In this document: piece by piece, positions 12,327 through 43,745 of the stretch
How positions within the stretch are numbered: position 1 is the stretch's first letter
Layout: each line of letters starts with the position of its first letter
Assembly: GCF_014334335.1 (NCBI RefSeq)
Contig: NZ_JACSEU010000001.1
Location: 1,550,001-1,614,000 of the forward strand
Length of the DNA stretch: 64,000 bases
Reading direction: 5' to 3'
DNA from: Treponema sp. Marseille-Q3903
GTDB taxonomy: Bacteria > Spirochaetota > Spirochaetia > Treponematales > Treponemataceae
Notes under the pieces: generated by a model
Databases searched by the model: none
What the model saw: the letters and a program-made list of their open reading frames with translations, nothing else
What the model was told of the DNA's origin: nothing
Position numbers and translations under genes: made by a program

Positions 12327-12342
12327 TTTTAATTCCTTAATT

Positions 12343-13819: not shown

Positions 13820-13876
13820 TTTTTCTTTTATTCTCCTTGGATTTATTTTATAAAAAGATTTATAAAAATCAATTTA

Positions 13877-14365: not shown

Positions 14366-14501
14366 AACCTCACTCCTAGTTGTAAAATCATTTTTCAGTT
14401 TCTGTCTAATTTTTTTTAATATTTTGTTATTAACAATTATAAACCTTTTTAGCTTTAAAATACAGTAAATTACTAATTTTTTATATTGTGCTTTTCTTCT
14501 A

Positions 14502-14541
14502 TTGACAACAGCCTTTATTCAAGCTATCTTGAATTAAAGGC
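14502..14541 (+). promoter_or_regulatory. Promoter of the RNase III/NYN pair with palindromic operator
   Basis: -35 TTGACA (14502-14507), 17-bp spacer, -10 TATCTT (14525-14530). A near-perfect inverted repeat (14511-14523 with 14528-14541) is centred on the spacer and -10, as expected for a repressor operator. The leader of about 200 nt to the ATG at 14740 holds smaller hairpins (TTCCC/GGGAA 14586-14603; ACACTTCGAAGTGT-like near 14702-14714). Nothing else is seen in 14366-14739. Confidence 0.6.
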
Positions 14542-14739
14542 ACTTCATTTGACACAGTGATTTAGAATTAACCTAAATGAATTGCTTCCCTTTTCGAGGG
14601 GAATCAGTCCAACTTATTTTAGTTTTAATGAATCTGTATTGAAAGTTCGTGTTTGATTTACCTTAAATATTTTACATTATTTATTTAACATCAATTATGA
14701 ACACTCGAAGTGTCTTCAAAAATCTATTTGGAGGCATTC

Positions 14740-15882
14740 ATGAATTTTAGTGAACAACAATCAATTATCAATTCTCAAAGAGAAATCGAAGAAAAAATCG
14801 GTTACAGTTTCGGGACAAACCGTCGTTTATTAGTACAGGCCTTTACAAGAAAATCTTTTGCCGAAGAAAATGAAGGAATCGAGGATAACGAAGTTCTTGA
14901 ATTTTACGGAGATCAGCTTGTAAACACCATTATGACAAAATGGATGTTTGACTCATTCAGCCAATACTCTGGCAGTTTTCAAAATGATTATTATTATTCT
15001 AAAAAAAATGAAGCTGAACTTTCTGAAATACGTGCCAGTTATATTAATAAATCTGCGTTGGCGCATTGTATAAGAATTCTTCAGCTAGAGTATTTTCTTC
15101 TGCTTGGCAAAGGTGATATAAAAAAAGAAATCTGGAATAATGATAAAGTTCTTTGCGATTTATTCGAAGCAATCATTGGTGCTATTGCTGTGCATTCAGC
15201 CACCCGTACATCAAATGGCTATAAATGGAATTATGATATTATAGAAAAGTCCTGTAAGAAAATGTGGGATATGTTAGATATCAAAGAAGACTATGTTGAA
15301 GAACTTGAATGTTTATGTGAAGAAATGGATATAGACTATCCAAAATATATTCCTCAACCAGTTTATCTTACCCCATCAGGACAAGAGTATCGTTGTAAAA
15401 TTGAACTTTATAATGATGACGGAAATTGTTTTAAAAGTTTAGAAGCTTCCGGAAATTCAAAAGTAGTTGCACAATTAAATGCAGCACAAGCTGCAATAAA
15501 CTATCTTGTAGGAAGTCAAATTAAAACTGAGCTTCAAAATGCAACTCCCGAAAATGCACTTGAATTATTAAATGTTCTTTTTTTAAGAAAACAAATTGCG
15601 AAACCAGAATTTAATTTTCCTTCTTGTAAAAATGAAGATGGTAATCAGGTCTGGACTTGTGAATGTTATATTACAACATTTGAAAATCTTCCAGGCTATA
15701 AAGAACATGGTATCGATACTGGTTATACAAAACAGGAAGCAAAACAAAATGCCGCCTATGATTTAATTTGCTGGTACTTAGATAAACCAAATGAAAATCG
15801 TATATGGATTTGTCCGGTATGTGGTGCTGAAAATTCATATGATACAAGAATATGTACAACTTGTTACGAAGGCGAAAACTAA
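14740..15882 (+). CDS. RNase III with two dsRNA-binding domains and a zinc ribbon
   Basis: 380 aa. The RNase III domain (about 15-170) has both catalytic signatures: NEVLEFYGD (E51, D58) and the second metal pair D140/E143 in CDLFEAIIGAI. Two dsRNA-binding domains follow (about 187-247, ending AQLNAAQAAINYL, and about 262-337, ending KQEAKQNAAYDLICWYL), then a RanBP2-like zinc ribbon (C358-x2-C361, C372-x2-C375). Housekeeping Rnc is about 240 aa with a single dsRBD, so this is an extra, elaborated enzyme. The start at 14740 follows TTGGAGG; an upstream in-frame codon lacks a ribosome site. Followed after 21 nt by the NYN-LOTUS gene on the same strand. Confidence 0.9.
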   Translation: MNFSEQQSIINSQREIEEKIGYSFGTNRRLLVQAFTRKSFAEENEGIEDNEVLEFYGDQLVNTIMTKWMFDSFSQYSGSFQNDYYYSKKNEAELSEIRASYINKSALAHCIRILQLEYFLLLGKGDIKKEIWNNDKVLCDLFEAIIGAIAVHSATRTSNGYKWNYDIIEKSCKKMWDMLDIKEDYVEELECLCEEMDIDYPKYIPQPVYLTPSGQEYRCKIELYNDDGNCFKSLEASGNSKVVAQLNAAQAAINYLVGSQIKTELQNATPENALELLNVLFLRKQIAKPEFNFPSCKNEDGNQVWTCECYITTFENLPGYKEHGIDTGYTKQEAKQNAAYDLICWYLDKPNENRIWICPVCGAENSYDTRICTTCYEGEN

Positions 15883-15903
15883 AAAAAATATAAGGATAAA
15901 AAT

Positions 15904-16641
15904 ATGGAAAATGAATTAGGAAAAATTGCATTATTAATTGATGCAGATAATTTTAAACAAATAAATAAAATAAAACCTGCCATTCTTGAAATTTCTAAGT
16001 ATGGCAAAATTTCATTAAAACGTGCTTATGCTAATTGGACAAAAGATCAGTTCAGTAATTGGGGCGAGGTACTTCGTAATTTTGCAATTAAGCCTATTCA
16101 TCAAATTGATTATGTATCTGGAAAAAATGCAACAGATATGGCACTTACAATAGACGCAATGGATTTTCTATATAACTCAGATTACGATGTTTTTGTAATT
16201 GTTTCAGGTGACAGTGATTTTACTCCACTTGCAATTAAATTAAAGGAATCCGGTAAAACCGTAATTGGAATTAGTGCAAAAGGTAATACTTCAGAAGCGT
16301 TTGTCTCATCTTGTGATAATTTTATTTATACAGAAAATCTTGAAAATGAAACACAAGAAACTTCAACCCCAGAAGATGATAAAGAAGTCACGAAGAAAGA
16401 TAAAAATCTTGAATTACAGGATTTAATCAAAAAAGCTTATGACAGTAAGAATGATGAAGAATATGTAAATGTTTCTATTGCCGGTTCTTATATAAAACGT
16501 GTAAAACCAGATTTTGATATTAGGAATTATGGTGTAAAAAAACTTACTGACTATTTGAAAAAATATCCTAAGCTTTATGATGTCAAAAATAGAAAATCTG
16601 GTAATAAATTAATATTTACTTATAAAATTAAAGAATCCTAA
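15904..16641 (+). CDS. NYN-domain nuclease with C-terminal LOTUS (OST-HTH) domain
   Basis: 245 aa. The NYN/LabA-like PIN-fold domain (about 7-145) has the acidic residues expected for metal-dependent RNA cleavage: D13 and D15 (ALLIDADNF), D78 (GKNATDMAL), D103 and D105 (VSGDSDFTPL). After a charged linker, residues about 168-245 fit a LOTUS/OST-HTH RNA-binding domain (VSIAGSYIKRVKPDFDIRNYG, then KKYPKLYDV). It starts 21 nt after the RNase III gene. The pairing suggests two nucleases acting on structured or double-stranded RNA. Confidence 0.88.
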   Translation: MENELGKIALLIDADNFKQINKIKPAILEISKYGKISLKRAYANWTKDQFSNWGEVLRNFAIKPIHQIDYVSGKNATDMALTIDAMDFLYNSDYDVFVIVSGDSDFTPLAIKLKESGKTVIGISAKGNTSEAFVSSCDNFIYTENLENETQETSTPEDDKEVTKKDKNLELQDLIKKAYDSKNDEEYVNVSIAGSYIKRVKPDFDIRNYGVKKLTDYLKKYPKLYDVKNRKSGNKLIFTYKIKES

Positions 16642-16680
16642 TTTAGCAAGTAAAAAAAGCTTCCAAACTCTCTCCGATTT
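16642..16680. repeat. 39-bp direct repeat, copy 1 (with hairpin)
   Basis: Identical to 36198-36236. Here its CTCTCCGAT end pairs imperfectly with ATCGGGGAGAG at about 16702-16712, giving a possible terminator between the convergent genes ending at 16641 and 16724. Confidence 0.8.
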
Positions 16681-16723
16681 GCCAGGGGGTAAGATCTTCG
16701 CTATCGGGGAGAGCCTTTTGCAG

Positions 16724-17014
16724 TTACTTATATTTTTTTGTCACACGTTTAATATAAGGCTTATCGCTCAAGTTAGGTTTTGGCTTAGATAAATAATTTT
16801 GCCGATTTCTTTCTCGAATCGGTAAATTATGTTCTCTTTCTTTTTTGCTTTCATATATCCTTCTAATAAATCTCCCACAGTTAGGACATTTATAAAAGCC
16901 GTCCTTTTTATCTTTCAAGAAGTTTTGAAATATATCCTGCTTCTTACAAAATCCACAATGTAATAAACAATCTTTTAATTCACCTGGTAATAAAGAATAA
17001 TTTCTACCTTTCAT
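16724..17014 (-). CDS. Small zinc-ribbon protein
   Basis: 96 aa from ATG at 17014, which overlaps the helicase stop by 4 nt (ATGA). Two cysteine pairs (HCGFCKKQ and YKCPNCGRFI) make a zinc ribbon, followed by a very basic tail (KPYIKRVTKKYK), so nucleic-acid binding is likely. Last gene of the prophage minus-strand series. No family recognised; possibly a late or replication regulator. Confidence 0.65.
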   Translation of the reverse strand: MKGRNYSLLPGELKDCLLHCGFCKKQDIFQNFLKDKKDGFYKCPNCGRFIRRIYESKKEREHNLPIRERNRQNYLSKPKPNLSDKPYIKRVTKKYK

Positions 17015-18447
17015 TTTACAATACCTCGCCATTCCACTTTCACACTCAGCCCCAGCCAAAACCGCTGTCCGTTAGTGCTCAACCTCTTAAAGCCTTTCTC
17101 GCTCATCCGTAAGCCCAGCCACTTTTGCGACATAACCCGCTCATTGTTTTTATTGCACCACTTGATATAAGTCTCATACAAAATCTTAGTATGAAGCCGC
17201 CAGCTCAAAGATCCGTCAATTTCAAGACAGTCATTTACAAAAGTTCCTACCGCATCCATATCCATTCTATATTCCTCATTAGCCTTGCTAACCGCATCCG
17301 CATCTCCAAGACCTTCTTTTTTCCACATCGCATATCCCTGGATAAGCCAGTTCAAAATTCCGGCATTTTCTGCAATCAGCTTTTCAGTAAGATTTTTATC
17401 CCTCTGTTCCGGCGGAATCGTTACATCAAAAGGAATCATTTTAATACGTCGCCAGATACCGTTATCAGCTCCGCGGATTTTCGGCTTATGGTTAGTCGCC
17501 ATAAAAATCTTAAAGGTCGGCTTAAAAGAAAAATACTCTCCGTACAAAAAGCGCGCCGTCAAAGAATCTTCTCCCGTAACACTTTTAATCAGGCTTTCAC
17601 TCATCGGGATTCCCTGTTCAATCTCGCTGGTAGTAACAAGCCTTGAACCCTTAAGACGTGCCAGGTCGTTACTCTGTTCCTTATTCTTTTTGATAAAGGT
17701 TTCAATACCAGTGCTGCAGCCGTAGTCACCAAAAAGCTCAAGCAGCACATTTAAAAAGGTTGATTTACCATTAGCACCAGTTCCAAACAAAATAAAAAGA
17801 CACTGTTCGCTGACATCACCGCTCAAAGCATAGCCGCAGGCTTTTTGAATAAAACGAATCAGTTGCATATCCTTAGCAAAAATCTGCATCAAAAAAGTTT
17901 TCCAAGTCGGACAGTCCGCCGCCTTGTCATAAATAAAATTGCTCTTCTTTGTAATAAGATGCTTGATGTTCGGCTCTTTAGCTTTTCCGGTTTTAAGATT
18001 CAGCGTCAGCCCCTCAACATTAAAAAGATAGTTATCCGTATCAAACTCTTTTTCAATTGTCTTGATTTCCGGCCGCATTTTCAAAAGCCCCACAATTGCC
18101 TGTATCTTTCTGAAGCTTTCACTTTTAATAAGATGCTTTTCAAAATCTTGCTTCAAAATCGGGTCTGGAATATAACGCTGAATTCTGTACATCTGGTGAA
18201 TGAAGATCGGAATACGTTCCTGCACAAAGCCTCGGTAATCAATCTCCCAGTTGGTCCCATTCCACACAAGAAACTTATCCCAGGTAATACAGTAGCGGAT
18301 TTTATCCTGATAAGCCCGAAGAAAATAAAGCGTATTCGTCAAATCCGTAAACTGCATTTCACCGCTTACGTATTTGTTAGCCTTCATCTCAAGTCCAATC
18401 TGTTCGAGGACAGCTCTTTCATTTTTAGAAAATTCAGTTTCATTCAT
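17011..18447 (-). CDS. Phage/plasmid primase-helicase, P4/D5 family
   Basis: 478 aa. The N-terminal half has the D5-type region; the C-terminal half is an SF3 helicase with Walker A LFGTGANGKSTF, Walker B and sensor region (GSRLVTTSEIEQGIPMSE, FKIFMATNHKPKIRGADNGIWRR) and a winged-helix end. It is shorter than typical 600-900 aa P4 primases, so it may be helicase only. It would unwind element DNA at replication. It lies downstream of the tail-fibre-like genes, an unusual position for a replication gene. Confidence 0.88.
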   Translation of the reverse strand: MNETEFSKNERAVLEQIGLEMKANKYVSGEMQFTDLTNTLYFLRAYQDKIRYCITWDKFLVWNGTNWEIDYRGFVQERIPIFIHQMYRIQRYIPDPILKQDFEKHLIKSESFRKIQAIVGLLKMRPEIKTIEKEFDTDNYLFNVEGLTLNLKTGKAKEPNIKHLITKKSNFIYDKAADCPTWKTFLMQIFAKDMQLIRFIQKACGYALSGDVSEQCLFILFGTGANGKSTFLNVLLELFGDYGCSTGIETFIKKNKEQSNDLARLKGSRLVTTSEIEQGIPMSESLIKSVTGEDSLTARFLYGEYFSFKPTFKIFMATNHKPKIRGADNGIWRRIKMIPFDVTIPPEQRDKNLTEKLIAENAGILNWLIQGYAMWKKEGLGDADAVSKANEEYRMDMDAVGTFVNDCLEIDGSLSWRLHTKILYETYIKWCNKNNERVMSQKWLGLRMSEKGFKRLSTNGQRFWLGLSVKVEWRGIVK

Positions 18448-26095: not shown

Positions 26096-28573
26096 TTATT
26101 CCTTATATCCCATTATTTTATAATAATCTGTTTTCCATATTTTCTTATTACAACCTTTGTTGTCACTTGTATAATTTGTACAAGCCAAGAAATAGTTATT
26201 TGATTTACCAGATTTTGCAATTAAATATCCGTCACAATCAGGACACTTCATAATTGCCAATTTTCCAGCATCAAGTTTATTTGTCATAAAATCACAGATT
26301 TCCGGTTCATTAGTACAAATCCAAAGATGAAGTCCATAAGCCTCTTTATACTTATGTTGTAGTGGATATCCACAAATCGGACATGATTTCTTGAATTTAT
26401 TCTGATCAGAAACTTCTTCGTTCCATTCACCTTTTAGGACAACATTCTTATAATCATTTTTAATTTCAAGTAAAAATTCAGAAGGGTTCTGTTCCGGAGC
26501 AATAAAATAAACTCTGTTTTTTGTTCTTGTCATTGCAACATAAAACAGACGTCTTTCTTCCGCAGCATCAATTGTATTATCACGCTTAATTACATAATTC
26601 AAAACTGGATCATCTTCGATTTTTGAAGGGAAACCGTAAGTTTCATTTTTACCATTTATAACGATAACATTATCATATCCAAGACCTTTAGATGCATGAG
26701 CTGTCATAAAGATAATATTCAACTTTGGGTATTTTAGGCATTTTACTTTACTACTATCTTTGTATTCAAAAAGTCCTGAACGTTCCAGATTCTTACCATC
26801 AAAGCCGAATCGGCCTAGTAACAAAATAGAAGAAGATTTCTTTTCAGCTTGTTTGTCATATTCTAGTATTTGTTCAATAGCTATTTCAACTGCTTTCGCC
26901 TGATTGTATATTGCTCCACTTCTTGCAGAAGAACCCTTTTCTTTTAGTTTAGAATCATAAGTATAAATAATAACAGGATCAGTTATTGTTTTTGGGGATT
27001 TCAAAGACTTTCGAATCTGAGATGAATTCTTCTGAATAAAGTTACCGGCAATATCAATTACTTCCTGTGAGTTACGATAAGTTTTTGTAATCGAAAGTAA
27101 TTCTGCATATCCCATTATTTCAGAGAACTTTGTAAATAATGTTATATCAGAACCACTAAAAGCATAAATAGATTGCCAATCATCACCTACAGCAATAATT
27201 TTTGCATTTGAATTAGTATGTAATGCTTCAACCAAATTGAATCGCTGTCTAGAAATATCCTGATATTCATCAACAATAATATATTTAAATTTAATCTGAC
27301 TTCTTACAGCTTCTGATTCTTTTAATAAAATTGCAGATTTATTAATCATGTCAGAAAAATCAATAGCATTGTGTTTATTCAAATAACGTTCATATTCAAG
27401 ATAACATTCTTTACATATACGAAGAAATAGTTTAGTTCTTACGTTGTTTGCAGATAACTGCCATTCATCAAATTGTTGAACTGTATATCCATTAGTCTTA
27501 AAATTCCCAATGAATCTATCAACAAGATTTATAAGCTTTCTGACATATCGGCTACCATCCTGGTCAGAAATCTTTTTCATAACTTCTTTATTATCTTTTG
27601 GAGTTAATATAAAGCCATCATCTTCAAGCTTTTCTCTTAAATGTTCTGTTAGTTCTCGTCCATCATTATATTTTGAACAAGTACAAATTAAGGTGGTCCC
27701 ATGCTGCTTATGAAGAGCAACTTTATCTTTCATAGCTTTCTGATATTTCTCTAATTCTTCTTTTGAATATCTGTTACTATAGCCATCTTGAGTTACACCA
27801 AAGTGTTCAATATATGCTTCTTTATCACCCTGCTTAATAATAAAATCAGGTGTGTAAGGCTTTATAGAACCTTCAATACTAAATTTATATTTTGGTTCAT
27901 ATTCATATTCAATATTATTCAGATACAAAAAGTTTGCAATTTGAACTTCTTCATTTGAACGTAATTGTTCATTTTGAATTGTTACATATTTTTTATCACC
28001 AGATGGAATAATTTTCTTTTCATATTCCCCAAGTTCACTTCGTAAAGTTGTAAATGAAGATGATGCTATCTTATTAAACAAGATGGCTTTATCAACTATT
28101 TCGTCAGCAGGTGCATCACAATAAGAAGCAAAAAAAGTTACAAGATCATCTACAAGCTTTTCATTTGTAAGTACAGATTCATTAAAGTAATCTTCAAGAA
28201 TAAAATATAATTTTTCATTCTGAACTATATTTAGTTTTTCATCATTCTGTTTATGAAGAATTGCATTTCCAGATGCATGAAATGTTGTTATAGGACAATC
28301 AATATGAAGTTGATTTTTGATCTTGTCACGTAATTCTTCTACAGCTTTATTTGTAAATGAAACTACTAAAATCTCTTCTGGCTTTATATTCAGCTTTTCA
28401 ACAAGACACTTTACTTTAGCAGCAACTGTTGTTGTCTTTCCTGCACCTGCACCAGCAATTACAAGACAGTAATCTTCATCAGTAAGAACTACTTTTCTCT
28501 GGTCATCATCAAGTTTAATAACTGGATCAATTTCTTTAAGAATATTATCAAGATATTCTTTTTCAGAAACCAT
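26096..28573 (-). CDS. UvrD/Rep-family helicase with embedded nuclease-like segment and zinc fingers
   Basis: 825 aa. Walker A GAGAGKTTT (41-48), motif II VDEYQDISRQRF, motif VI VAMTRTKNRVYF. Between helicase subdomains, about residues 205-310, is a PD-(D/E)XK-like insertion (YTPDFIIKQGDKEAYIEHFG). The C-terminus has topoisomerase-type zinc fingers (CPICGYPL, CPDCDGYL). Superfamily 1 3'-5' helicase, probably anti-phage. The ATG at 28573 lacks a ribosome site and the same frame reads as protein upstream, so the true N-terminus is probably missing. Confidence 0.8.
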   Translation of the reverse strand: MVSEKEYLDNILKEIDPVIKLDDDQRKVVLTDEDYCLVIAGAGAGKTTTVAAKVKCLVEKLNIKPEEILVVSFTNKAVEELRDKIKNQLHIDCPITTFHASGNAILHKQNDEKLNIVQNEKLYFILEDYFNESVLTNEKLVDDLVTFFASYCDAPADEIVDKAILFNKIASSSFTTLRSELGEYEKKIIPSGDKKYVTIQNEQLRSNEEVQIANFLYLNNIEYEYEPKYKFSIEGSIKPYTPDFIIKQGDKEAYIEHFGVTQDGYSNRYSKEELEKYQKAMKDKVALHKQHGTTLICTCSKYNDGRELTEHLREKLEDDGFILTPKDNKEVMKKISDQDGSRYVRKLINLVDRFIGNFKTNGYTVQQFDEWQLSANNVRTKLFLRICKECYLEYERYLNKHNAIDFSDMINKSAILLKESEAVRSQIKFKYIIVDEYQDISRQRFNLVEALHTNSNAKIIAVGDDWQSIYAFSGSDITLFTKFSEIMGYAELLSITKTYRNSQEVIDIAGNFIQKNSSQIRKSLKSPKTITDPVIIYTYDSKLKEKGSSARSGAIYNQAKAVEIAIEQILEYDKQAEKKSSSILLLGRFGFDGKNLERSGLFEYKDSSKVKCLKYPKLNIIFMTAHASKGLGYDNVIVINGKNETYGFPSKIEDDPVLNYVIKRDNTIDAAEERRLFYVAMTRTKNRVYFIAPEQNPSEFLLEIKNDYKNVVLKGEWNEEVSDQNKFKKSCPICGYPLQHKYKEAYGLHLWICTNEPEICDFMTNKLDAGKLAIMKCPDCDGYLIAKSGKSNNYFLACTNYTSDNKGCNKKIWKTDYYKIMGYKE

Positions 28574-29950: not shown

Positions 29951-30778
29951 TTACTTTTCTTCGAGAGTTTTTGCCACACCATTTACAATAGTCTCATGAA
30001 CAAAAACAATTTGCCCTTTTTTATTCTTATAAAAATCACTGCTTAATCGTTTGAAATATCCACGACGGAAGTGTGGAATAACAACACCGGCTGCAGCTTT
30101 TTCAGTAACATCAACAACTTTTTCTGATGTATTTAAATAATGATTGTTTTCAGTTTTTACATCATGAGGAGCACCATCTACAAGACAATCAGGAAAACAG
30201 TAAATGTATGAAAGCAGATTAATAGCAAGCTTTGTAATCTCATTCATTTCTTGGTCTGTATAGACGATAGATTTTTTATCTTCAATTTCATTACTTGAAA
30301 TATGGTATTGCTCCATTCCATGATTTACGAAAATACGTAGTTCGTTTGAAATGTCATAAAGAGAATAAGCAAAAACATAGCCCTGTGACTTTTTAGGAAT
30401 GTGAAGACAGATTCCAAAGTTTATTCCAGTTGTGAGATTTTCAAGTTTGTCATCATTGTTAAGAACTACACTACAGCCATTGTCTTTAATGTAAGTTTTT
30501 ATTCCTTCCAGGTCTCTTATTTCTGCAGCCTTAAAGAAGTCCATAAGGTTTTCATCTTTTAAGTAAATATGAGTGAGCTCATGATTCAGATCCCGTAAGA
30601 AAAGCTGGCAGCAGGTAGCGTCATCCATTGAAGATACAAAATTTGAAATAAACCACTGTCGGAACATTTCAGGTGTTTCAGAATTAGGCTTTCCGTCCGG
30701 AGAATTTTCTCTACAGAACTTTCTGTAAGCATCATAAAAGAGACCAAATGTTTTGTCGTACTGTATATGTTTACTCAT
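29951..30778 (-). CDS. Defence-block protein with a PHFRRG motif
   Basis: 275 aa, cytoplasmic. The C-terminal segment VVIPHFRRGYFKRLSSDFY then GQIVFVHETIVNG resembles the PHxRxGHxRR signature shared by several plasmid and phage proteins, a likely nucleic-acid-binding tail; the rest is not recognised. It overlaps the upstream membrane gene by 8 nt. No lesion. A role in defence or element maintenance is inferred only from context. Confidence 0.6.
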   Translation of the reverse strand: MSKHIQYDKTFGLFYDAYRKFCRENSPDGKPNSETPEMFRQWFISNFVSSMDDATCCQLFLRDLNHELTHIYLKDENLMDFFKAAEIRDLEGIKTYIKDNGCSVVLNNDDKLENLTTGINFGICLHIPKKSQGYVFAYSLYDISNELRIFVNHGMEQYHISSNEIEDKKSIVYTDQEMNEITKLAINLLSYIYCFPDCLVDGAPHDVKTENNHYLNTSEKVVDVTEKAAAGVVIPHFRRGYFKRLSSDFYKNKKGQIVFVHETIVNGVAKTLEEK

Positions 30779-33613: not shown

Positions 33614-33620
33614 TAAGACT

Positions 33621-36189: not shown

Positions 36190-36197
36190 TTGATTAC

Positions 36198-36275: not shown

Positions 36276-37303
36276 TTATTCTTCTGTAGTTTTAAGAAGA
36301 ACCATATTCTTCTTAGGTCTAGTAACAAGGAAGCCGTCACGCTTACGGAAGCGCATAAAGAGCTCGCCGTATTCCAGGCCTTCGGTTGTTTCATCAAAGC
36401 GCTTGATTTCGATTCCCTTGCGGTTACCGTGGATGATTCTTTTTGGATTCATAAAGATGGCAATTACCTTGTCGGCTTCTAGGTCGGCAAGCTGCGGCAT
36501 CAGTCTTGATTCCACAATGTCATAACCATCAATGCGTGTACGAGTAGGCATGTTTGATTTTTTGTAGCATCGATTTTCTGGCCGTATGAAGTAAGCCACT
36601 TCAATTCAATTCCGCCACGGTCACGCTCTGGGATAAAGATTGAAGGTCCGTTCATTGGGCGATGGGTTACGAGATTCATCATTACAGACTGCTTTGCAGC
36701 TTCCTGCATGATTGTCTCTTCGTAAATCGGATTGATAAGATACTGGTCATTATTTGCCAGGTTTCCGATTGGCTCCCCGAGAACGGCTTTCTGTGGTACA
36801 AAGCCCTTTCCGGTTTCCCAGGTAAAGTCTTTTGGATTGTTCCACTTCTCTGCCCTGATGTTTGGACGGAATTTCAACTGGCCCAAAGTTTCGTGGTCTT
36901 TGTTCCATGCGGCAACAAGACCTTTACCAACGTTGTAGCAAACGTCGCGGTAAGTCAAAGGCTTCATTTCTGAATCAGTCTTTTTAAGAAGGTTACGAAG
37001 CTCCTTAACTGATTCTCTGATTCCTTCAAGCTCTGTTGTAGAGGCAGTCTGCTGACTGTCTGCCATTTTCAAAATTCCGTCAATGAGATCTTCTGTCTCA
37101 TTAAAGTATTTTGAAATCTGTTCCGGTGTTGCAGCTTCAGTTGGCACCAAGCTTTTCATATTGCTAAGTTTCTGCTGCAAAGATACAATTACTTCGTTCA
37201 AGGTATCCTCCAAGTTGGTCTTGAATACAGGGCTGCTTCCATGTTCCAATTGCAAGCAGTCCTGCTTTATTTCATTTATGCACGAGCTTTCAAGCCCGAA
37301 CAA
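36276..37303 (-). pseudogene. HK97-type major capsid protein, frameshifted
   Basis: The first frame runs from a TTG at 37303 (MFGLESSCINEIKQ) through a coiled-coil scaffold-like delta region, YNVGKGLVAAWNKDHETL and FIPERDRGGIELKWLTSYG to KIDATK, then closes. The next frame continues SNMPTRTRIDGYDIVESRLM and ends LLKTTEE at 36276. The switch is in a run of six A (plus-strand T 36558-36563); seven A would restore T-K-K-S. The joined protein of about 342 aa has normal capsid length. Protease and portal upstream are also broken. Confidence 0.8.
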
Positions 37304-37907
37304 ACCTTTTCAAAAAACGAAAGCTCTTCCTCCTGAATTACTTCCGTAATCTCAAGTCTCTTCTGCGGTACGTGAAGGGCAAAGGGATTTGCCGGCACAC
37401 TGCAGATAGAAAATTCCAAAAGCTCCTGCTTTCTGTAAATCAAATCACAGTCGCGGTCCTTGGCTTCCAGAAACTCAAGCTCATCAACTCTAAAGCCCAC
37501 CGAGCCGCAGCGTAACACTCCGGCCTTTACACGCTCTCCAATGCTCCAGCCAAATTCATCAAAATCCTTTGCATTAAAAAGAATGTCGCCTTCAAGCGTT
37601 TTGTAAGCTGTCACATTCTGGACAATTCCAATAGGCGGAATCGAATAGTCGTGACTCCAGAGCACCACAGGATTAGAAAGATAGTTTTTTAATCCCAGCC
37701 GCATGGATCAACTTTCTCAAAGTCGCGGTCCGTATCAAAGGTACTCATTACCCAGTGAAAAGAATCCTTCTGCACATCCACAGCCTTGAATACTTCTACC
37801 TGGGCACTAACTTTTCCAGAGCTCGTATTCTCTTTAAGGAACTTCAAGAAAAAATTTCTGTCTTTTCCAAAGTCCTTATTTTCAACGCCGTCAATCTTGA
37901 CTACCAT
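37276..37907 (-). pseudogene. Prohead protease (S78 family), frameshifted
   Basis: Start ATG 37907 with GGAGG 5 nt upstream. The first part ends STFDTDRDFEKVDPCGWD then TAA; one frame away it continues LKNYLSNPVVLWSHDYSIPP and EFSICSVPANPFA. The last two segments carry the protease His and Ser. Restoring one T at 37685-37692 gives W-D-L-K-N-Y in a single frame of about 210 aa. Its start overlaps the LuxR-like gene by 17 nt and its end overlaps the capsid by 28 nt. Confidence 0.82.
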
Positions 37908-38544
37908 TCCAGCCTCCCATATTTCTATCAAGCATCTGTCTGTAAACCTCTGCATAATCTGCAGGATTTTGATAACCAATCTTTAATCTCAGGTAGTGGA
38001 TGTAAGAGCAGACCGAGCTGTCAGTAACGTTCATCTCGTAGGCAATTTCTTTAACAGTCTTTCCCTTGGCAAGAGCAACCGCAACATCAAACTCAGTGTC
38101 AGTTAGCTCGCCGACAGCCCGGGTTAGATGCAGACCGTTTTTAATGTCATCAAGAACAGTCTGAGGGTAAGCAGAGTTTCCGCTGAAGATTTTCTGCAGA
38201 GCAGGCAGCAGAGTATCGCTTGTTTCTGCATTACAGATAAAGCCCGAAGCTCCAAGCTTATGAACTCTAAGCCCAAAGAAATCCGAGCAGCTTTCTCCAG
38301 TCTCAAAAAAGACAAAACGCAGCTTGTCATTTATTCCCTTAAGACTGGTCATCTTTTCCTGAATACAAAGGTCTAAGAAAAACTTTTCAACCAGAATCAC
38401 ACAGTCACTGTCAGAGCCAAGATGATACTTAAAGTCATCATCCTTCAAGACATCAAAGGTCTGCACCTGCGGAAGCTTCTGCTTTAAGAATTCTTTTACA
38501 GTTCCCTTAACCACATAATTAGAAGTAGCAAAAAACAATTTCAT
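37891..38544 (-). CDS. LuxR-type DNA-binding protein with pseudo-receiver domain
   Basis: 217 aa from ATG 38544 (2 nt after the portal stop). The N-terminal receiver-like domain (1-130) has Glu where the phospho-acceptor Asp of strand 3 would be (SDCVILVEKFFLDL). The C-terminal LuxR/GerE helix-turn-helix is clear: ELTDTEFDVAVALAKGKTVK then EIAYEMNVTDSSVCSYI. It sits between portal and prohead protease, where phages normally have only structural genes. Probably a transcription regulator that does not need phosphorylation. Confidence 0.82.
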   Translation of the reverse strand: MKLFFATSNYVVKGTVKEFLKQKLPQVQTFDVLKDDDFKYHLGSDSDCVILVEKFFLDLCIQEKMTSLKGINDKLRFVFFETGESCSDFFGLRVHKLGASGFICNAETSDTLLPALQKIFSGNSAYPQTVLDDIKNGLHLTRAVGELTDTEFDVAVALAKGKTVKEIAYEMNVTDSSVCSYIHYLRLKIGYQNPADYAEVYRQMLDRNMGGWNGSQD

Positions 38545-38545
38545 A

Positions 38546-39764
38546 TTAGTTTTTGTCCCCACAATTTTTATTGTCATCAGAATCAAAAGCCGAAATTGTA
38601 TTGGGCTTCCACCAGCTGTCGCCCCAGGGCTTTTCCTTTTGTCCCCGTGCTCTCAAAACATCATTAATTGTTTTAAGTCCGGCATTGATTTCTGCAATAT
38701 CCCGGTTGCTCTGGGCATCCTCAGATTCCTGCAGTTCCGGGATATTGTTAAGGTTGAATTCCCCGGTCTGTAAAAGATTGAACCGGCGAAAGAACTGAAC
38801 TTCCAGAATCTGCTCAAAGTTCTTGAGCAGTGGAATAAGCGTAAAGTTCCAGAACGCCCGATGCTGGGAATCTGTATCGGTGCCGCTCAATGAACTTTTG
38901 GAATCCTGAATATTGGCAACTCTAGGCGGGATGCCGAATTTCGCAAGAAGTGTATACAGGTTCCACTTCTTCATATCGTAAAGCTTCAGAACGTCGGGGC
39001 TGAACGTAAGAGGCTGGTATTCTGTACCTTTACCCAGTACAGCCACACGATTTTTCATGCCGTGGCCGTATTTTGAGTCCCATGTACGAGCAAGTAATTC
39101 TGCTTCTGTCTCTATGAGAATCTGGTCTGTTTTTAAAAGCCCCTTAGGAACCCCACCTTCTTTTAAAAGTCCTGAATTCTGCTTGGCGGCGAGCAAATCT
39201 TGTTCGACTTCAAGACCCAAGCTTACCAGCGGACTTACTCCGCGGTATTCATTCCACGGATTCCAGTCCTTAAAGTGAATTATTTCATCAGGAAGAATTA
39301 TGAGAGGCTTGCCTGTAGCTCCATCTGTATAAACCCACTTGGTAATCTTTCCGCCTTCAACAACGTGCTGCATATTCCGCGGATTTAAGATGTAAATCTC
39401 CGAAGGAATGCCGCAGCAGTAGTCCTCGCCGAACCACCAGAAAGCCTCTCCGTTGAGGCTCCACCAGGCGCAGGTTTGCTTCCAAATATCAAACCTGCAT
39501 ATGCTTTTATTCGGGTACATAAAGAGCTTAGCCAGTTTTGAATCACTTTCTGTCTTGCCGTTTTTCTTAATTTCAAATTCAGCACGCGCTACGTTACGAG
39601 TCAAAATATCAATACATGCCGATACCCAGGCGTGCTGTAAATAAGGATCCGTGCAGGTCTTTTTATCTCTCACCGAAAAGTCATCTGCCACAGTTTCATT
39701 ATTTATCTCAGAAAAGCTTCGTAACTTTTTTTTCTTGCTGGTTCCTCTTTTTAAAAAGTCCCAT
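38546..39764 (-). pseudogene. Phage portal protein, frameshifted near its start
   Basis: HK97-type portal. The main frame (from GTG 39691) covers about 381 aa with DPYLQHAWVSACIDILTRNV, WYTDG-type beta elements and the end ARGQKEKPWGDSWW. A better start, ATG 39764 (MGLFKKRNQQEKK), lies in another frame and joins LRSFSEINNETVADDF across a run of eight A (plus-strand T 39726-39733); seven A would make one frame. The shortened GTG-started protein may still be made. Portals form the DNA entry ring and bind terminase. Confidence 0.75.
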
Positions 39765-39783
39765 ATAAATTATCGGTATTACC

Positions 39784-40995
39784 TCAACCTAAAACGACCC
39801 CGGATGTCGCTGCGCTGAAAATCGCATAATGCATAGCGTCCATGTAGTGGTCATTAACTTTTACAATCTGATTATTCTCATCACGCGAATAATCCCATAT
39901 TTCACCAAGAACACCGGTGCAGTCTTTACAAACAAAAAACTGTCCGCGTTCAATCTTTGCAATTATGTAATCAATCCCTGCATCCACAGAGTTATTAGCT
40001 TTCACACCTCCAGGCACTTCCTGAATTCTTTCACCCCCGGCCGGGTCACAGTAGGTAACAAAGCAGTCATCATACCAGTTCTTAGCCTGCTGCTGCTCAA
40101 CAGAAGTTTTAGTCGTAATATTAAAGCCGCCAAAATCAGCGACAACATAAACAGTCTCTCCAACCCAGCCAACCTTAACCGCCGCAATATGAAGCACAAA
40201 ATCCTGACCGCCTATAAAGCGGTCAAACTCTTCCGGCAGCTGGTCCCGAGTCAGGATCATTGACTCTTCAAACTTTTCATAAACAGAGCCCTCAGGCTTT
40301 ACCCAAAGACCATCACGGAATCGGGCCCGCTGTTTTTCCGGCATGTTATCCAGAATGTCGCTGATGTAATCTTCATCAAGGTTTTCAGCGTTATCCATCG
40401 GGTTTAAAACTTCCGAAGCATAAAGCTCCGGCTTGTTTAATTTCTCATCAGTCCTCGGTTCAATCTTTCGAATGAACACCTTGTAAGCCCAGTGCATAGG
40501 GCTGCACGGGTTACAGTCATAAAAAAACTTATTCTTACAGCCTTCAACCTTCATCGCCAGTCGCGAATAGGCAGTAGTAATTGCAGAATAAGAAATCTGG
40601 CTCACTTCGTTAAAGTAAATAGTCACATACTCGTGTCCAAGAATGCGGTCTACCTGTTCCTTATCCCCAAGTCCGCCAATCCAAATCTCAGAGCCGTTCC
40701 AAAGCGTTATAAGTCCGTCGTGTACATTAGCCTTGTAGTTGGAAGCTCCAATTGTCTTATTAAGCCAGGGAAGAAAAGTCTCATGCAAAACAGAGCTTCT
40801 TGCATCCTTTGCACGAAAGCGGCAGATTAAATGTCTGCTTCCCGGGTAACGGCAGGCACGAAAAATAATGGCCATAACAAGCACCGTAGTTTTTCCCGAA
40901 CGCGAACCGCCAAAAAGCAGAACATGCTTCGCAGAAGAACTAAGCAGCTTCAAGGCCTTTTTCTGAACAGCCGTCGGCTTAAACAGCTCTCTCAT
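39784..40995 (-). CDS. Terminase large subunit
   Basis: 403 aa. The packaging ATPase has Walker A LLFGGSRSGKTT and Walker B YVTIYFNEVSQIS; the C-terminal RNase H-like nuclease has Asp-containing strands VVADFGGFN, TYCDPAGGE and YMDAMHYAIF. It drives DNA into the prohead through the portal. It overlaps the small subunit by 1 nt. Intact, unlike portal, protease and capsid downstream. Confidence 0.93.
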   Translation of the reverse strand: MRELFKPTAVQKKALKLLSSSAKHVLLFGGSRSGKTTVLVMAIIFRACRYPGSRHLICRFRAKDARSSVLHETFLPWLNKTIGASNYKANVHDGLITLWNGSEIWIGGLGDKEQVDRILGHEYVTIYFNEVSQISYSAITTAYSRLAMKVEGCKNKFFYDCNPCSPMHWAYKVFIRKIEPRTDEKLNKPELYASEVLNPMDNAENLDEDYISDILDNMPEKQRARFRDGLWVKPEGSVYEKFEESMILTRDQLPEEFDRFIGGQDFVLHIAAVKVGWVGETVYVVADFGGFNITTKTSVEQQQAKNWYDDCFVTYCDPAGGERIQEVPGGVKANNSVDAGIDYIIAKIERGQFFVCKDCTGVLGEIWDYSRDENNQIVKVNDHYMDAMHYAIFSAATSGVVLG

Positions 40996-41534
40996 TACAA
41001 ATCCTTAAAAGAATCTGCAAAAGTAATAGCCAGTTCCCCCTGAACAGGCTTTGAGCTTTCCTTGTCCGCTCCGGTAATGAACGAATCAAGCTTTGCAGAA
41101 CGTTCAAGCAAATCCATAGCACCGTCTGCATCAAGCTTTTCCGGGTCCAGAGTCTTAAGTCTTTTTCCAACAAGCTCGTCAAACCCGTTCAGCATTTCCA
41201 TCTGGCGTCTTTTGCGTTCAACACGTTCCGCCAGTAATTCTCTTTCAGTCTCCTTTTCAATATAGGCATCATATTCTGCAGCACGCTCATTCCAGTGATA
41301 GAGCCTTGCATAACGAGCCCAGGAGCCGTACTTCTTCGGCTCAATTCCGTGCATCTCCATACAGGCCTTAATGCTACGCTTATAGCCCATGGCACGAAAA
41401 AGACAGAAAGCCTTAAAAGCCTTGGGAGACTCATCGATTAATTTTTTCTCCCAGGACTTTTCTGGCTCTGCCACTTTTGAATTAAGTTCACTGTTTAAGT
41501 TTGCGGATGTCGAAACAGTGTCCTTATCTCCCAC
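40995..41534 (-). CDS. Terminase small subunit
   Basis: 179 aa. The N-terminal helix-turn-helix-like part (KAFCLFRAMGYKRSIKACME) and the WARYARLYHWNERAAEYDAY segment are typical of small terminase or phage DNA-binding packaging proteins; the C-terminal half is helical. Directly upstream of the large terminase. It would recognise the packaging site. Confidence 0.8.
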   Translation of the reverse strand: MGDKDTVSTSANLNSELNSKVAEPEKSWEKKLIDESPKAFKAFCLFRAMGYKRSIKACMEMHGIEPKKYGSWARYARLYHWNERAAEYDAYIEKETERELLAERVERKRRQMEMLNGFDELVGKRLKTLDPEKLDADGAMDLLERSAKLDSFITGADKESSKPVQGELAITFADSFKDL

Positions 41535-41560
41535 CTGAACACCTCCTTTTGCCTGAATGG

Positions 41561-41635
41561 TGGTAAAGCTAAAAATTGCTGTCGCAATTTTCTTAACGCT
41601 TTGCTATTTATCACCGCCCGCCAGCGGGCTTACTC
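41561..41635. repeat. Dispersed hairpin repeat, copy D (inverted)
   Basis: Same family as 7192, 22677 and 36113 but in the opposite orientation. Includes a GC-rich hairpin GCCCGC/GCGGGC next to the AAAATTGC hairpin. Lies between the small terminase and the 62-aa gene. Confidence 0.7.
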
Positions 41636-41636
41636 A

Positions 41637-41825
41637 TTATTTCCTAACGACGTAGCGGTTCACGCTTCGTCTTGTAATATGCTCGCAAAAGCTTTTTTCA
41701 AGCTTCACAGGGCATCCGTCATTCAACGTTATCCTGACGATAATCTCGCCATACTTTTCTTCCGCGGCAATACGCCTGCAGTAGTCATTCGATTCTTCAA
41801 GAATCTTAGAAAGAGGTACATTCAT
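41637..41825 (-). CDS. Small prophage protein
   Basis: 62 aa, overlapping the stop of the AlpA-like gene by 4 nt (ATGA). Contains EESNDYCRRIAAEEKYGEII and a basic end. No family recognised. The tight coupling supports a real gene, perhaps an early regulator or small packaging accessory. Confidence 0.55.
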   Translation of the reverse strand: MNVPLSKILEESNDYCRRIAAEEKYGEIIVRITLNDGCPVKLEKSFCEHITRRSVNRYVVRK

Positions 41826-42016
41826 GCTTCCACCTCACAAACCTGATTTCCAAGCCAGGAAAATAAATCCGACTTTCTGAAAATCAAACGACGCCCAAGC
41901 TTCACATGCGGAATCTTTTTCTCCCTGCAGAGCTTGTACATAAAAGTCCGGCTAAAGCCCAGATACTCACAAGCCTGCTTAAACGAAAGTAAATCCAAGT
42001 TTTTTTCTTCTGCCAT
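41822..42016 (-). CDS. AlpA/excisionase-type DNA-binding protein
   Basis: 64 aa from ATG 42016 with AGGAG 8 nt upstream. MerR-like winged helix of the AlpA/Xis kind: LSFKQACEYLGFSRTFMYKL then IPHVKLGRRLIFRKSDLFSW. Such proteins direct the integrase to excise or activate transcription. It lies next to the integrase gene behind a terminator hairpin and the prophage-specific operator. Confidence 0.85.
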   Translation of the reverse strand: MAEEKNLDLLSFKQACEYLGFSRTFMYKLCREKKIPHVKLGRRLIFRKSDLFSWLGNQVCEVEA

Positions 42017-42050
42017 TTCTTTCACTCCTTTTTTTGAGATGAATAAAAAC

Positions 42051-42086
42051 AAAAAAAGCCACAGCAGAACTTAATCTGCTATGGCT
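42051..42086 (-). terminator. Terminator between integrase and AlpA gene
   Basis: On the minus strand, AGCCATAGCAGA pairs with TCTGCTGTGGCT (one G-T), followed by seven T. It ends integrase transcription, but it also lies immediately after a predicted promoter (-10 at 42089), so it could work as an attenuator for the alpA-terminase genes. Confidence 0.75.
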
Positions 42087-42088
42087 CT

Positions 42089-42142
42089 ATCTTAAATCTA
42101 AACCCCGTTTGCAAAGTGCCAATTAGTGCTTACATTTTGCCC
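42089..42142 (-). promoter_or_regulatory. Prophage promoter with inverted-repeat operator (copy 1)
   Basis: -10 TAAGAT (42089-42094), 17-bp spacer, -35 ACTTTG (42112-42117) inside the repeat CAAAATG ... GGCACTTTG, as at 24272 and 25115. Upstream of the AlpA-terminase genes. Confidence 0.6.
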
Positions 42143-42178
42143 ACGCTATAAAACAATCCGTTTGCATTTTGAAAACAA

Positions 42179-43690
42179 CTAGGCCGTAAGATACTTTTCC
42201 CAGGCACTCGAAATAACTGTACGCATATTTTCAAACTTCTCCTGAGTCTCATGATCAGAGTAGTGGTCCGTCATAGTAAAGGATTTATGGCCCATAATCT
42301 GCATTACAAGCTCTTTATCAGCCTTCTGCTTCAACATCGTACAGCAGAAGTGACGCAGACTGTGTAATACAATGTTTCTCTCCTTACGAACCAACTCGCT
42401 GACTCCAATCTCTTCCAGGGCTTTATAAAAACAGTCGCCGTAATAGCCCGGAGTAATCGGCATTTTATGATTCTTTACAGACCAGAAGACATAACTCAAA
42501 TCGCCATACTCAGGATTCCGTCTAGCCTGGTTCATAAGCTGTAAGGCAATAGAATGCTCAATCGGTAAATCCCGAACCTCTTTGTTTTTCGTAGTCTTCA
42601 AGCCGTCCATCTCGCTAAAGCTGTGGCGAACATGAAGCATATCTCCAACAACATCAATATCGCAGACACGAATCCCGCTGATTTCACCGGCACGTAAGCC
42701 GTAGAATGCCGCAACCTTAAAGGCAAGCTTTGCAGTATTGTTTTCCAAGTTCAGAGCAAGCAGCCTTCGAATCTCAGTCTCAGTCGGAATATCGCGCTCA
42801 TCCGCATCCACCTTAAAGCGCTCAACACTTGCAACCGGATTCACAGTAATTTTCTGCTGCTTAGCAAGCCAGTTCAAACAGCGGTTTACACAGTTTATAT
42901 TTTTATTAATCGTCTCACTTGCAAGCTCTTTTACGTCATGAAGATAAAACAAAAAGTCATCCAGCTCCGGAACCGTCAAATCCTCGATGCACATATCATC
43001 GCCAAAATAAGGCCTCCAGTAATTACGTACAAAAGCCTTCATGCAAAAGGCATACTTTTTCGAAAGCGAATGTCCGCGGTCCAGCTGCCTTTTAATAAAC
43101 ACAGAAGTATCATAATCCCAAAAGCTCTCAAGGTTAGCACAGAGAAGATGCTTGCCGTCAGGAGTCAAACCAATGCTTGACACAAAACTTGCGCAATCTT
43201 TAAGAGCCGGTTTTTCGTTCTTCACAAGCTTCATTTTTCCGTCAGCGGACTTTTTAATCACAATAACTTTTTTTGGCTTAGGACTTTCAGAAGGAGTAGG
43301 AGCCGAAGCCTGCACAGGAGAAGAAACAGGAGCAAGAGCCTCAACCACAGGTTTTCCAAGCTCCAAAGTCTTTTGAGAAAGGACAGGAGAATCAAAACCA
43401 AACTTCTCAGAAAGCATAGCAACAACAGTCTTTGCGTCACTTTCAGAAAGCCGGTCTACAAAGCTTTTCAAGGAAGTCGGAACAAGAATAGAATCGTCGG
43501 ATTTTAATTTACGGGAATTAGCGTGGGCAGCAGGCTTACCGTTCTTAAGCCATTCGTTTGCAATAACCGCAGCTTCAAGCTTGTCTTTCGTGCCCGTACT
43601 CTTTCCGTAATCGCGGATACCAGTTACAGGGTCAATAAAATAGGCCTTGTAATAACCAGAGCTAGTCTTACCAAGATAAAACTGACGCAC
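42179..43690 (-). CDS. Tyrosine recombinase (prophage integrase)
   Basis: 503 aa from GTG 43690, chosen because AGGAGG lies 5 nt upstream; the frame extends 13 codons further without a ribosome site. The N-terminal arm-binding domain (FYLGKTSSGYYKAYFIDPVT) is followed by a Pro/Ser-rich linker (about 110-150), a SAM-like core-binding domain and the catalytic domain with Arg in FYGLRAGEISGI, HSLRH, MGHKS and the nucleophile Tyr in TDHYSDHE. It catalyses integration into the tRNA-Gly gene 250 bp away. Intact. Confidence 0.95.
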   Translation of the reverse strand: MRQFYLGKTSSGYYKAYFIDPVTGIRDYGKSTGTKDKLEAAVIANEWLKNGKPAAHANSRKLKSDDSILVPTSLKSFVDRLSESDAKTVVAMLSEKFGFDSPVLSQKTLELGKPVVEALAPVSSPVQASAPTPSESPKPKKVIVIKKSADGKMKLVKNEKPALKDCASFVSSIGLTPDGKHLLCANLESFWDYDTSVFIKRQLDRGHSLSKKYAFCMKAFVRNYWRPYFGDDMCIEDLTVPELDDFLFYLHDVKELASETINKNINCVNRCLNWLAKQQKITVNPVASVERFKVDADERDIPTETEIRRLLALNLENNTAKLAFKVAAFYGLRAGEISGIRVCDIDVVGDMLHVRHSFSEMDGLKTTKNKEVRDLPIEHSIALQLMNQARRNPEYGDLSYVFWSVKNHKMPITPGYYGDCFYKALEEIGVSELVRKERNIVLHSLRHFCCTMLKQKADKELVMQIMGHKSFTMTDHYSDHETQEKFENMRTVISSAWEKYLTA

Positions 43691-43745
43691 AAAAACCTCC
43701 TGTGGCCTCGAATATCCACAAGCCGGCATTTTTTCTCAAATTGGT

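What the first reader, a model, noticed from the sequence alone, without database searches (positions are those of the whole stretch)
14740..16641. RNase III with two dsRBDs and a zinc ribbon paired with a NYN-LOTUS nuclease
Two adjacent co-directional genes on mobile DNA encode a catalytically intact RNase III (E51/D58/D140/E143) carrying two dsRNA-binding domains plus a zinc ribbon, and a NYN nuclease with intact acidic residues fused to an OST-HTH/LOTUS RNA-binding domain. Each part is a known family; the pairing recalls eukaryotic dsRNA-processing architecture and I know of no described bacterial system built from both. It could sense phage dsRNA, or process element RNA. Domain calls are seen in sequence; the system claim is inference.
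Basis: partly seen in the sequence, partly recalled or inferred. Interest (0 to 1): 0.85.

Follow-up and report, generated by a model that had tools for sequence, protein, structure and literature searches.

The report
Mobile double-dsRBD RNase III with leader RNA
A prophage-borne bacterial RNA-cutting enzyme, built like a minimal Dicer, belongs to a widespread mobile family whose genes carry a structured RNA just upstream and different neighbouring genes, often other nucleases, just downstream.

Summary
Window 14740-15882 encodes an intact RNase III with two dsRNA-binding domains and a Cys4 tail; 15904-16641 encodes a NYN-LOTUS protein; both lie in a prophage, and the genome has a separate ordinary rnc. 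A dedicated RNase III/NYN-LOTUS system is not supported: homologues are adjacent only in this phage and one near-identical metagenome phage.

Following the RNase III led further. It belongs to a mobile family (140 relatives found, 80 examined) in treponemes, Clostridia and Mycoplasmatota. The conserved unit is a leader RNA of about 200 nt plus the RNase III. The main leader type covaries strongly (score 0.59; shuffles 0.22), has an AUGCAAGU loop and tends to mask the ribosome-binding site. In 192 whole genomes its model hits 25 places: 24 directly upstream of these genes, one at a contig end. The window's clade has a diverged leader, likewise specific (6 of 6). The next gene is exchanged behind closely related RNase III genes: CoiA-like, HNH, PIN/NYN and others.

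Most likely reading: a self-regulated dsRNA-cleaving cargo enzyme with interchangeable partners, probably aimed at phage or element RNA. Leader, unit and exchange are computed; function is inferred. No experiment was done.

The parts
14502..14530 (+). sigma70-like promoter, TTGACA-17-TATCTT
   Evidence: Consensus scan, 10 of 12; both hexamers are kept in L005 while the spacer differs (sequences printed). The number of promoter-like sites in the region is not above shuffles (15 against 12.7), so this is supportive only.
14536..14651 (+). structured leader RNA core (model R2, window-clade type)
   Evidence: Conserved in related loci (7 sequences); 5 of 44 predicted pairs of the whole leader have changes on both sides; MFE z=-3.7; R2 hits 6 places in 192 genomes, all directly upstream of this RNase III family (compared).
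14709..14738 (+). hairpin that pairs the Shine-Dalgarno GGAGG (14730-14734); also terminator-like
   Evidence: Terminator-like scan; consensus fold; SD pairing probability near 1.0 for the window; family median 0.98 (n=52) against 0.45 for other genes (n=343).
14740..15882 (+). RNase III: nuclease domain (aa 28-154), dsRBD1 (185-265), dsRBD2 (273-346), Cys4 tail (about 358-375)
15904..16641 (+). NYN nuclease domain plus OST-HTH/LOTUS, presumed co-transcribed partner
   Evidence: acidic positions D13, D15, D78, D84, D87, D95, D103 and D105 are invariant in 8 aligned sequences
14497..16718 (.). cassette shared with metagenome phage L005 at 97.8%, against 91-92% for three neighbouring phage segments and 78% for another; left edge sharp
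   Evidence: blastn
26096..28573 (-). UvrD helicase with C-terminal zinc ribbon; homologue of the +4 gene behind the RNase III in L044 (possible further module part)
   Evidence: 39% identity over 815 alignment columns to L044:12426-15404
29951..30778 (-). unknown protein of about 275 aa; homologue of the +1 gene behind the RNase III in L044 (possible further module part)
   Evidence: 33% identity over 285 alignment columns
36500..43729 (-). prophage head and packaging genes and integrase that place the pair on mobile DNA
   Evidence: PHROG matches to portal, terminase large and small, head protease, major head protein (weak, E=4e-5) and integrase

Best explanation
The RNase III is the constant part of a mobile cargo unit: a structured 5' leader RNA plus a Dicer-like RNase III (one catalytic domain, two dsRBDs), often followed by an exchangeable partner gene, frequently a second nuclease. 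In this prophage the partner is NYN-LOTUS. Likely working: the unit is transcribed in the lysogen; the leader hides the ribosome-binding site and is itself a substrate or binding site of the enzyme, so the enzyme limits its own synthesis. Foreign double-stranded RNA (phage or element transcripts) competes for the enzyme, is cut, and relieves the self-limitation; the partner nuclease then acts on the cut RNA or on another nucleic acid of the invader. Shown by computation: the fold and intact residues, the mobile setting, the covarying leader and its position, the masked SD, and the exchange of the partner behind the RNase III. Inferred: transcription in the lysogen, self-cleavage, competition by foreign dsRNA, the anti-invader role, and any cooperation between RNase III and NYN-LOTUS.
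For: Leader type R1: covariation score 0.590 against 0.221+-0.014 in 500 shuffles (none as high) and at most 0.177 when slid. R1 found at E<1e-3 in 70 of 89 RNase III loci, most of its 58 training sequences being among them, and at 25 places in 23 of 192 genomes: 24 directly upstream on the same strand of the family genes, one reading off a contig end. Window-clade leader R2: 6 of 6 hits upstream; it also hits the R1-type leader of L112 at the same place (27.8 bits, E=0.001). The leader is about as conserved as the coding sequence (mean 65-67% against 56-67%), DNA beyond it 30-35%. SD masked. Partner exchange: L120 (HNH) and L249 (CoiA-like) are 90% identical from the leader to the RNase III stop codon with no match behind it; tree. 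Twenty of 35 genomes with a CoiA-like match have it directly behind this RNase III. Mobility.
Against: No experiment. In S. aureus RNase III controls itself through its coding sequence, not a leader (PMC3386247, passages). PADLOC finds no known defence family for the RNase III (best match REase_II at E=0.003). The window's leader is not an R1 member (11.7 bits) and lacks the AUGCAAGU loop; the link R2-R1 rests on one modest hit, and wrong-strand self-matches of R2 reach 32 bits. For the window alone the leader is no better conserved than the coding sequence (54-63% against 58-63%). The count of pairs changed on both sides (17 of 18) is little above shuffles (mean 15.2; 15 of 500 reach it), and three outer pairs of the arm are mostly unpaired in the alignment. 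A long-range closing helix was only weakly supported (27 of 45 against 18.2 expected). In the window's own clade the RNase III is usually solitary, so NYN-LOTUS may be a chance neighbour.
Confidence: 0.42

Rival explanations
1. RNA-antidote module (works like type III toxin-antitoxin): the leader is a separate RNA that the RNase III processes and that holds the enzyme inactive; phage takeover of transcription frees a toxic RNase.
For: Same order as ToxIN: promoter, structured RNA, terminator-like hairpin, endoribonuclease. A conserved apical loop and a strictly cis location in the genomes searched. Mobile distribution.
Against: No tandem repeats of the RNA as in ToxI; the hairpin masks the SD, which suits cis control; whether the RNase III is toxic without its leader is unknown.
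Confidence: 0.18
2. Element's own RNA maturation enzyme: the phage or integrative element uses the RNase III to process its own transcripts or sense-antisense pairs, with no defence role.
For: Two tandem genes of one cluster lie upstream of the RNase III in all nine newly found viral contigs (L168-L176; only parts of both in some) and in one genome locus (L163); in L168 both are large serine recombinases. Twelve phage records hold RNase III-like matches at 26-33% identity covering at most 61% of the query.
Against: No phage structural family stood out among the recurrent neighbours of the treponeme loci (not scanned systematically); the partner changes while the RNase III stays; the host already has an rnc.
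Confidence: 0.2
3. One reading: a dedicated two-component system of RNase III plus NYN-LOTUS that senses or processes phage dsRNA.
For: Adjacent, co-directional, 21 bp apart, kept together in two phages at 98%; one analogous PIN7/NYN partner in L129.
Against: No other adjacency in 89 further RNase III loci or in 46 NYN loci beyond copies of the two phages; the closest relatives lack the partner.
Confidence: 0.1
4. Unlinked passengers: a spare RNase III and a NYN-LOTUS gene picked up separately; the leader is ordinary autoregulation without wider meaning.
For: NYN-LOTUS is an independent, patchy gene in this genus; in G008 it sits beside genes that read by eye as TIR, HNH and ATPase, in G042 beside metabolic genes.
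Against: Non-random partner classes: 17 CoiA_N and 7 HNH_3 among 53 partners, near-copies included; start-stop overlaps with the RNase III in many loci.
Confidence: 0.1

Closest known systems
Bacterial RNase III (rnc, TIGR02191)
   Same: Nuclease domain, active-site residues, first dsRBD
   Different: TIGR02191 score 116.7 against a cut-off of 166.25; second dsRBD; mobile second copy; separate from five ordinary rnc genes of the genus on the tree (SH-aLRT 100)
Budding-yeast minimal Dicer Dcr1
   Same: One RNase III domain plus two dsRBDs (abstract of PMC4521922); K. polysporus Dcr1 3rv0 found by profile (E=5e-9)
   Different: Sequence and fold closer to bacterial RNase III; no Piwi match in the own genome; no evidence of size-defined products
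E. coli rncO autoregulatory leader
   Same: 5' stem-loop in the RNase III mRNA (stated in PMC3386247; passages seen)
   Different: Different gene family; covarying RNA with an AUGCAAGU loop and masked SD; no Rfam match in the leaders tested
Type III toxin-antitoxin ToxIN
   Same: Structured RNA directly upstream of an endoribonuclease gene
   Different: ToxN is not RNase III (recalled); the antitoxin consists of multiple RNA repeats (abstract of PMC8860590, start seen); here a single RNA and a masked SD
NYN-LOTUS proteins (human MARF1 and kin)
   Same: NYN nuclease plus LOTUS domain; [quoted passage not shown]
   Different: One LOTUS domain, no RRM found; a bacterial family present in 24 of 25 related genera

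Membership tests
RNase III superfamily | RNase III fold with the acidic active site and a dsRBD | tested here: met
Housekeeping rnc (TIGR02191 equivalog) | Score above the curated cut-off | tested here: not met
   116.7 against 166.25 bits; the genome has another rnc
Minimal Dicer (Dcr1 type) | One RNase III domain plus two dsRBDs | tested here: met
   architecture only, not descent
Minimal Dicer (Dcr1 type) | Works with an Argonaute; products of fixed length | tested here: inconclusive
   No Piwi match in the own genome; product length cannot be tested here
NYN-LOTUS | NYN domain and OST-HTH/LOTUS domain | tested here: met
   PF01936 133.6 bits (cut-off 24.2); PF12872 46 bits (cut-off 23.8)
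Leader RNA R1 (defined here) | Significant R1 score and AUGCAAGU loop | tested here: not met
   Window leader: 0 matches at E<=1 in the window, best 11.7 bits with filters off, no loop motif. It is filed under R2, which cross-hits one R1 leader
Type III toxin-antitoxin | ToxN-like toxin and tandem-repeat RNA | tested here: not met
   The protein is RNase III, with no ToxN family among its Pfam, NCBIfam or PADLOC matches; the repeat finder on 13800-17100 gave scattered diverged copies, no tandem array
Known anti-phage defence systems (PADLOC 2023) | Convincing match to a system profile | tested here: not met
   RNase III: REase_II at E=0.0026 only; NYN protein: NYN at 5e-6 and HEC-09 at 4e-4, both partial
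E. coli rncO-like autoregulation | The enzyme cleaves its own leader and lowers its own expression | not testable with these tools
   Needs an in vitro cleavage assay and a reporter

The most novel reading that the evidence does not exclude
A new class of mobile RNA-protein system: a Dicer-like bacterial RNase III governed by a cognate structured RNA with a near-invariant AUGCAAGU loop, which senses foreign dsRNA and licenses one of several interchangeable nucleases (CoiA-like, HNH, PIN/NYN) encoded behind it.
Probability: 0.17. Interest if true: 0.92.

Novelty: new variant of a known kind. Interest (0 to 1): 0.74.

Why it matters
RNase III is usually treated in bacteria as one housekeeping enzyme, and dsRNA as an infection signal as a eukaryotic theme (general knowledge). 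A mobile RNase III family of minimal-Dicer architecture, mostly led by its own covarying RNA and often followed by an exchangeable nuclease, would make bacterial dsRNA-triggered immunity directly testable. The RNA is a new candidate family (no Rfam match in the loci tested) with a fixed genomic partner, so its function can be assayed at once.

Tried and rejected
RNase III plus NYN-LOTUS as a recurrent pair: rejected by the surveys.

NYN-LOTUS of G042 beside a phage primase: suspected because its neighbour also has 478 aa; that neighbour had no match to the window's proteins and reads as a uronate isomerase (by eye), so rejected.

Attachment site: no exact direct repeat of 14 nt or more between the left edge and the tRNA-Gly region; best ungapped match 11 nt. 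The left prophage end is not proven. L005's left flank holds genes that read by eye as WYL-like and HNH-like, so 14497 is a cassette edge, not shown to be attL.

Long-range closing helix GGCAC/GTGCC: weak by my test (45 of 58 leaders have a GGC; 27 of these find a complement, 18.2 expected). The shuffles there were mononucleotide.

Bacterial Argonaute link: no Piwi match in the own genome; other genomes not searched.

Literature: searches listed no paper that, by title and start of abstract, describes this RNase III family, its leader or the pair. Seen beyond listings: passages of PMC3386247 and outline with abstract of PMC4521922. A motif paper sought by DOI was not held, and PMC8040213 (thousands of candidate RNAs) was not opened, so the RNA may be listed somewhere unnamed.

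Structure of the CoiA-like partner and Foldseek against viral models: never accepted, queue full (122, 131).

Caveats: R1 was built from 58 leaders chosen because they hold ATG[CAT]AAGT, so the loop is conserved by selection; the stems are not. The SD test used 52 of 82 genes; 30 were dropped because no SD-plus-start pattern in frame was found. The gene caller is a simple longest-ORF script and misplaces some starts. The genome scan kept 80 of 140 relatives. Many relatives are fragmented metagenome assemblies. The counts 24 of 25, 6 of 6, 20 of 35 and 50 of 196 are my readings of printed coordinates.

Full report
1. The observation. The RNase III has the nuclease domain, two dsRBDs and a Cys4 tail. 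E54, D58, D140 and E143 are invariant and E51 nearly invariant in an alignment with 31 relatives. The AlphaFold2 model (pLDDT 89.7, pTM 0.73) shows both dsRBDs; Foldseek's best PDB matches are bacterial RNase III, followed by Dicer and Drosha chains and tandem dsRBDs of MLE, TRBP and Loqs. It is not the housekeeping enzyme: TIGR02191 scores below cut-off and a separate rnc lies at C1:1441830. On a tree it stands, with 81 family members, apart from five ordinary rnc genes of the genus (SH-aLRT 100; quick tree with long-branch warnings). PHROGs holds both proteins only as phage families of unknown function.

2. Setting. The pair is at the left part of a prophage with head protein, protease, portal, terminases and integrase at 36.5-43.7 kb and a tRNA-Gly beyond the integrase. 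No att repeat was found. A metagenome phage contig (L005) carries the pair in a 2.2-kb cassette 97.8% identical to the window, while three neighbouring phage segments are 91-92% identical and one 78%. The cassette begins sharply at 14497, next to a TTGACA-17-TATCTT promoter-like site.

3. The pairing. NYN-LOTUS is a common gene: 64 of 97 genomes, 24 of 25 genera. The RNase III is accessory: 50 of 196 genus genomes at 108 bits or more, my reading. The two scans with alignment A2 gave 80 genome loci (of 140 relatives) and 11 viral loci, two of them the window's phage and L005. In none of the other 89 (L088-L176) does NYN-LOTUS lie beside the RNase III; L103 has a distant NYN about 5 kb away. Among 46 NYN loci only copies of the same two phages have the RNase III. 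The five nearest RNase III relatives have an opposite-strand, spurious or missing next gene. So the pair is a local combination, not a conserved system.

4. What the RNase III does keep. Downstream: of 90 loci (window included) 83 have a next gene, and in 58 it is co-directional and within 200 bp, often overlapping by 1-4 bp. Of 53 such partners scanned by Pfam (five near-copies, fragments or spurious ORFs left out), 17 match CoiA_N, 7 HNH_3, 4 HTH_3, 2 NYN (the window's, and a PIN7/NYN protein in L129), and one each DUF4379, Thg1 and DUF2971 among others. Four partners form one cluster; the one scanned (L168) resembles PADLOC's HEC-07 (E=6e-8). After removal of near-copies (95%), 82 RNase III genes remain: 17 with a CoiA-like next gene, 5 HNH, 2 of the HEC-07-like cluster, 1 c17, 1 NYN-LOTUS, 28 other, 25 without a close co-directional gene, 3 at contig ends. 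Twenty of the 35 genus genomes with a CoiA-like match have it directly behind this RNase III. The partner is swapped: L120 (HNH) and L249 (CoiA-like) share the upstream flank and are 90% identical from the leader through the RNase III stop codon, with no match after it; in L112/L132 and L256/L196 (about 80% and 78%) the match ends some 30 and 90 nt before the stop codon. On the tree the CoiA label needs 8 changes (shuffles 15.8) and the five HNH rows need 5.

5. The leader RNA. Looking upstream gave the strongest result. The 200 nt before the start codon are on average about as conserved as the coding sequence (65-67% against 56-67%), while DNA further up is at 30-35% (two clades). Fifty-one of 80 upstream regions of 350 nt hold the exact 8-mer ATGCAAGT (about 0.4 expected by simple arithmetic). 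In 58 aligned leaders, chosen by this motif with one variable base, 82% of cells of the three-stem structure pair (shuffles 60%), and the covariation score is 0.590 (shuffles 0.221+-0.014, 0 of 500; slid versions at most 0.177). 17 of 18 pairs have changes on both sides, but shuffles reach 15.2 on average, and three outer pairs are mostly unpaired, so that one measure is weak. The covariance model R1 finds 70 of 89 loci at E<1e-3 on the plus strand, each just upstream of the RNase III, most training sequences being among them; seven weak minus-strand matches lie on the same spots. In whole genomes it finds 25 places in 23 of 192. Compared with the coordinates, 24 lie directly upstream of the family's genes and one reads off a contig end; nothing else was listed at E<=0.01 with the stricter filters. 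Rfam 15 has no match in the leaders tested (window at E<=1; seven loci at gathering score).

6. The window's own leader. It is not an R1 member: no hit, 11.7 bits with filters off, no AUGCAAGU. But it is conserved in its clade (L088-L092), folds better than all 200 shuffles (z=-3.7), shows 5 pairs with two-sided changes among 44 in 7 sequences, and its model R2 hits 6 of 192 genomes, each time directly upstream of this RNase III family. R2 also hits the R1 leader of L112 at the right place (27.8 bits, E=0.001), and weakly that of L094 (E=0.71); wrong-strand self-matches of R2 reach 32 bits, so this is modest evidence. I read R2 as a diverged member of the same leader family; this is likely, not shown.

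7. Masked ribosome-binding site. In 52 of 82 genes with a recognisable SD, its pairing probability has a median of 0.98, against 0.45 for 343 other genes of the same loci (p=9e-18, relatedness not corrected). The window's GGAGG sits in a hairpin at 14709-14738, which also looks like a terminator. Together with points 4-6 this makes leader plus RNase III one unit with probable cis control.

8. How it may work. E. [quoted passage not shown] aureus RNase III its coding sequence (PMC3386247, passages). The simplest reading is that this enzyme binds or cuts its leader and so limits itself, and that foreign dsRNA competes. The partner would act second; for a CoiA-like or HNH partner the target is probably DNA, for PIN/NYN RNA (family knowledge, not tested). 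A type III toxin-antitoxin-like reading (RNA as antidote) fits the gene order but lacks repeats, and the masked SD argues for cis control. A role in the element's own RNA maturation remains open, notably because in the nine newly found viral contigs and in L163 the gene follows recombinase-cluster genes (family named from L168).

9. A wider cargo link. The same prophage holds, 10-15 kb away, a UvrD helicase with a zinc ribbon and a 274-aa unknown protein. Their homologues stand behind the RNase III in L044/L045, the unknown one at +1 and the helicase at +4. The prophage may thus carry parts of one module in two places; this is suggestive only.

10. Closest known, and novelty. By architecture the protein matches the minimal budding-yeast Dicer (abstract of PMC4521922; K. 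polysporus Dcr1 found by profile), by sequence bacterial RNase III. No Piwi match was found in the own genome. I call it a new variant of a known kind: an RNase III with an autoregulatory-type leader, but as a mobile family with a new candidate RNA and exchangeable partners.

Noticed in passing
window 31254-34649: Restriction cargo: an endonuclease with a BpuJI N-terminal domain (E=5e-102) and NOV_C, flanked by two ORFs that read by eye as C5 DNA methyltransferases.
   Followed up: partly
window 26096-28573 and 29951-30778: UvrD plus zinc-ribbon helicase and an unknown 274-aa protein, homologous to genes behind an accessory RNase III in L044.
   Followed up: partly
window 8982-13044: A 1114-aa TPR-CHAT protein next to an 8xMP membrane protein, left of the pair.
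   Followed up: no
window 36276-37303: The major head protein region appears split over two overlapping reading frames (by eye), so the prophage may be defective.
   Followed up: no
window 36195-36236; L005 5588-5629: The 42 bp behind L005's NYN-LOTUS gene also match window 36195-36236 at 95%; an 18-mer from the window's own stretch at 16670 found no second copy with up to 3 mismatches. Possible repeated terminator or cassette edge.
   Followed up: partly
L108:10990-11655: A Thg1-like (tRNA-His guanylyltransferase) gene 11 bp behind an accessory RNase III.
   Followed up: no
L238 (G008:C7): The second-closest NYN-LOTUS relative lies among genes that read by eye as TIR, HNH and ATPase-plus-HNH (Septu-like) defence genes.
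   Followed up: no
L102, L112, L131, L144 at +2 behind RNase III: A protein of about 520-550 aa (DUF2963 in the one scanned, L102) follows both CoiA-type and HNH-type units, as if a third, constant member.
   Followed up: partly
L147:3201-3278 (-): A skipping-rope RNA (RF02924) lies near an accessory RNase III in a Tyzzerella metagenome-assembled genome.
   Followed up: no
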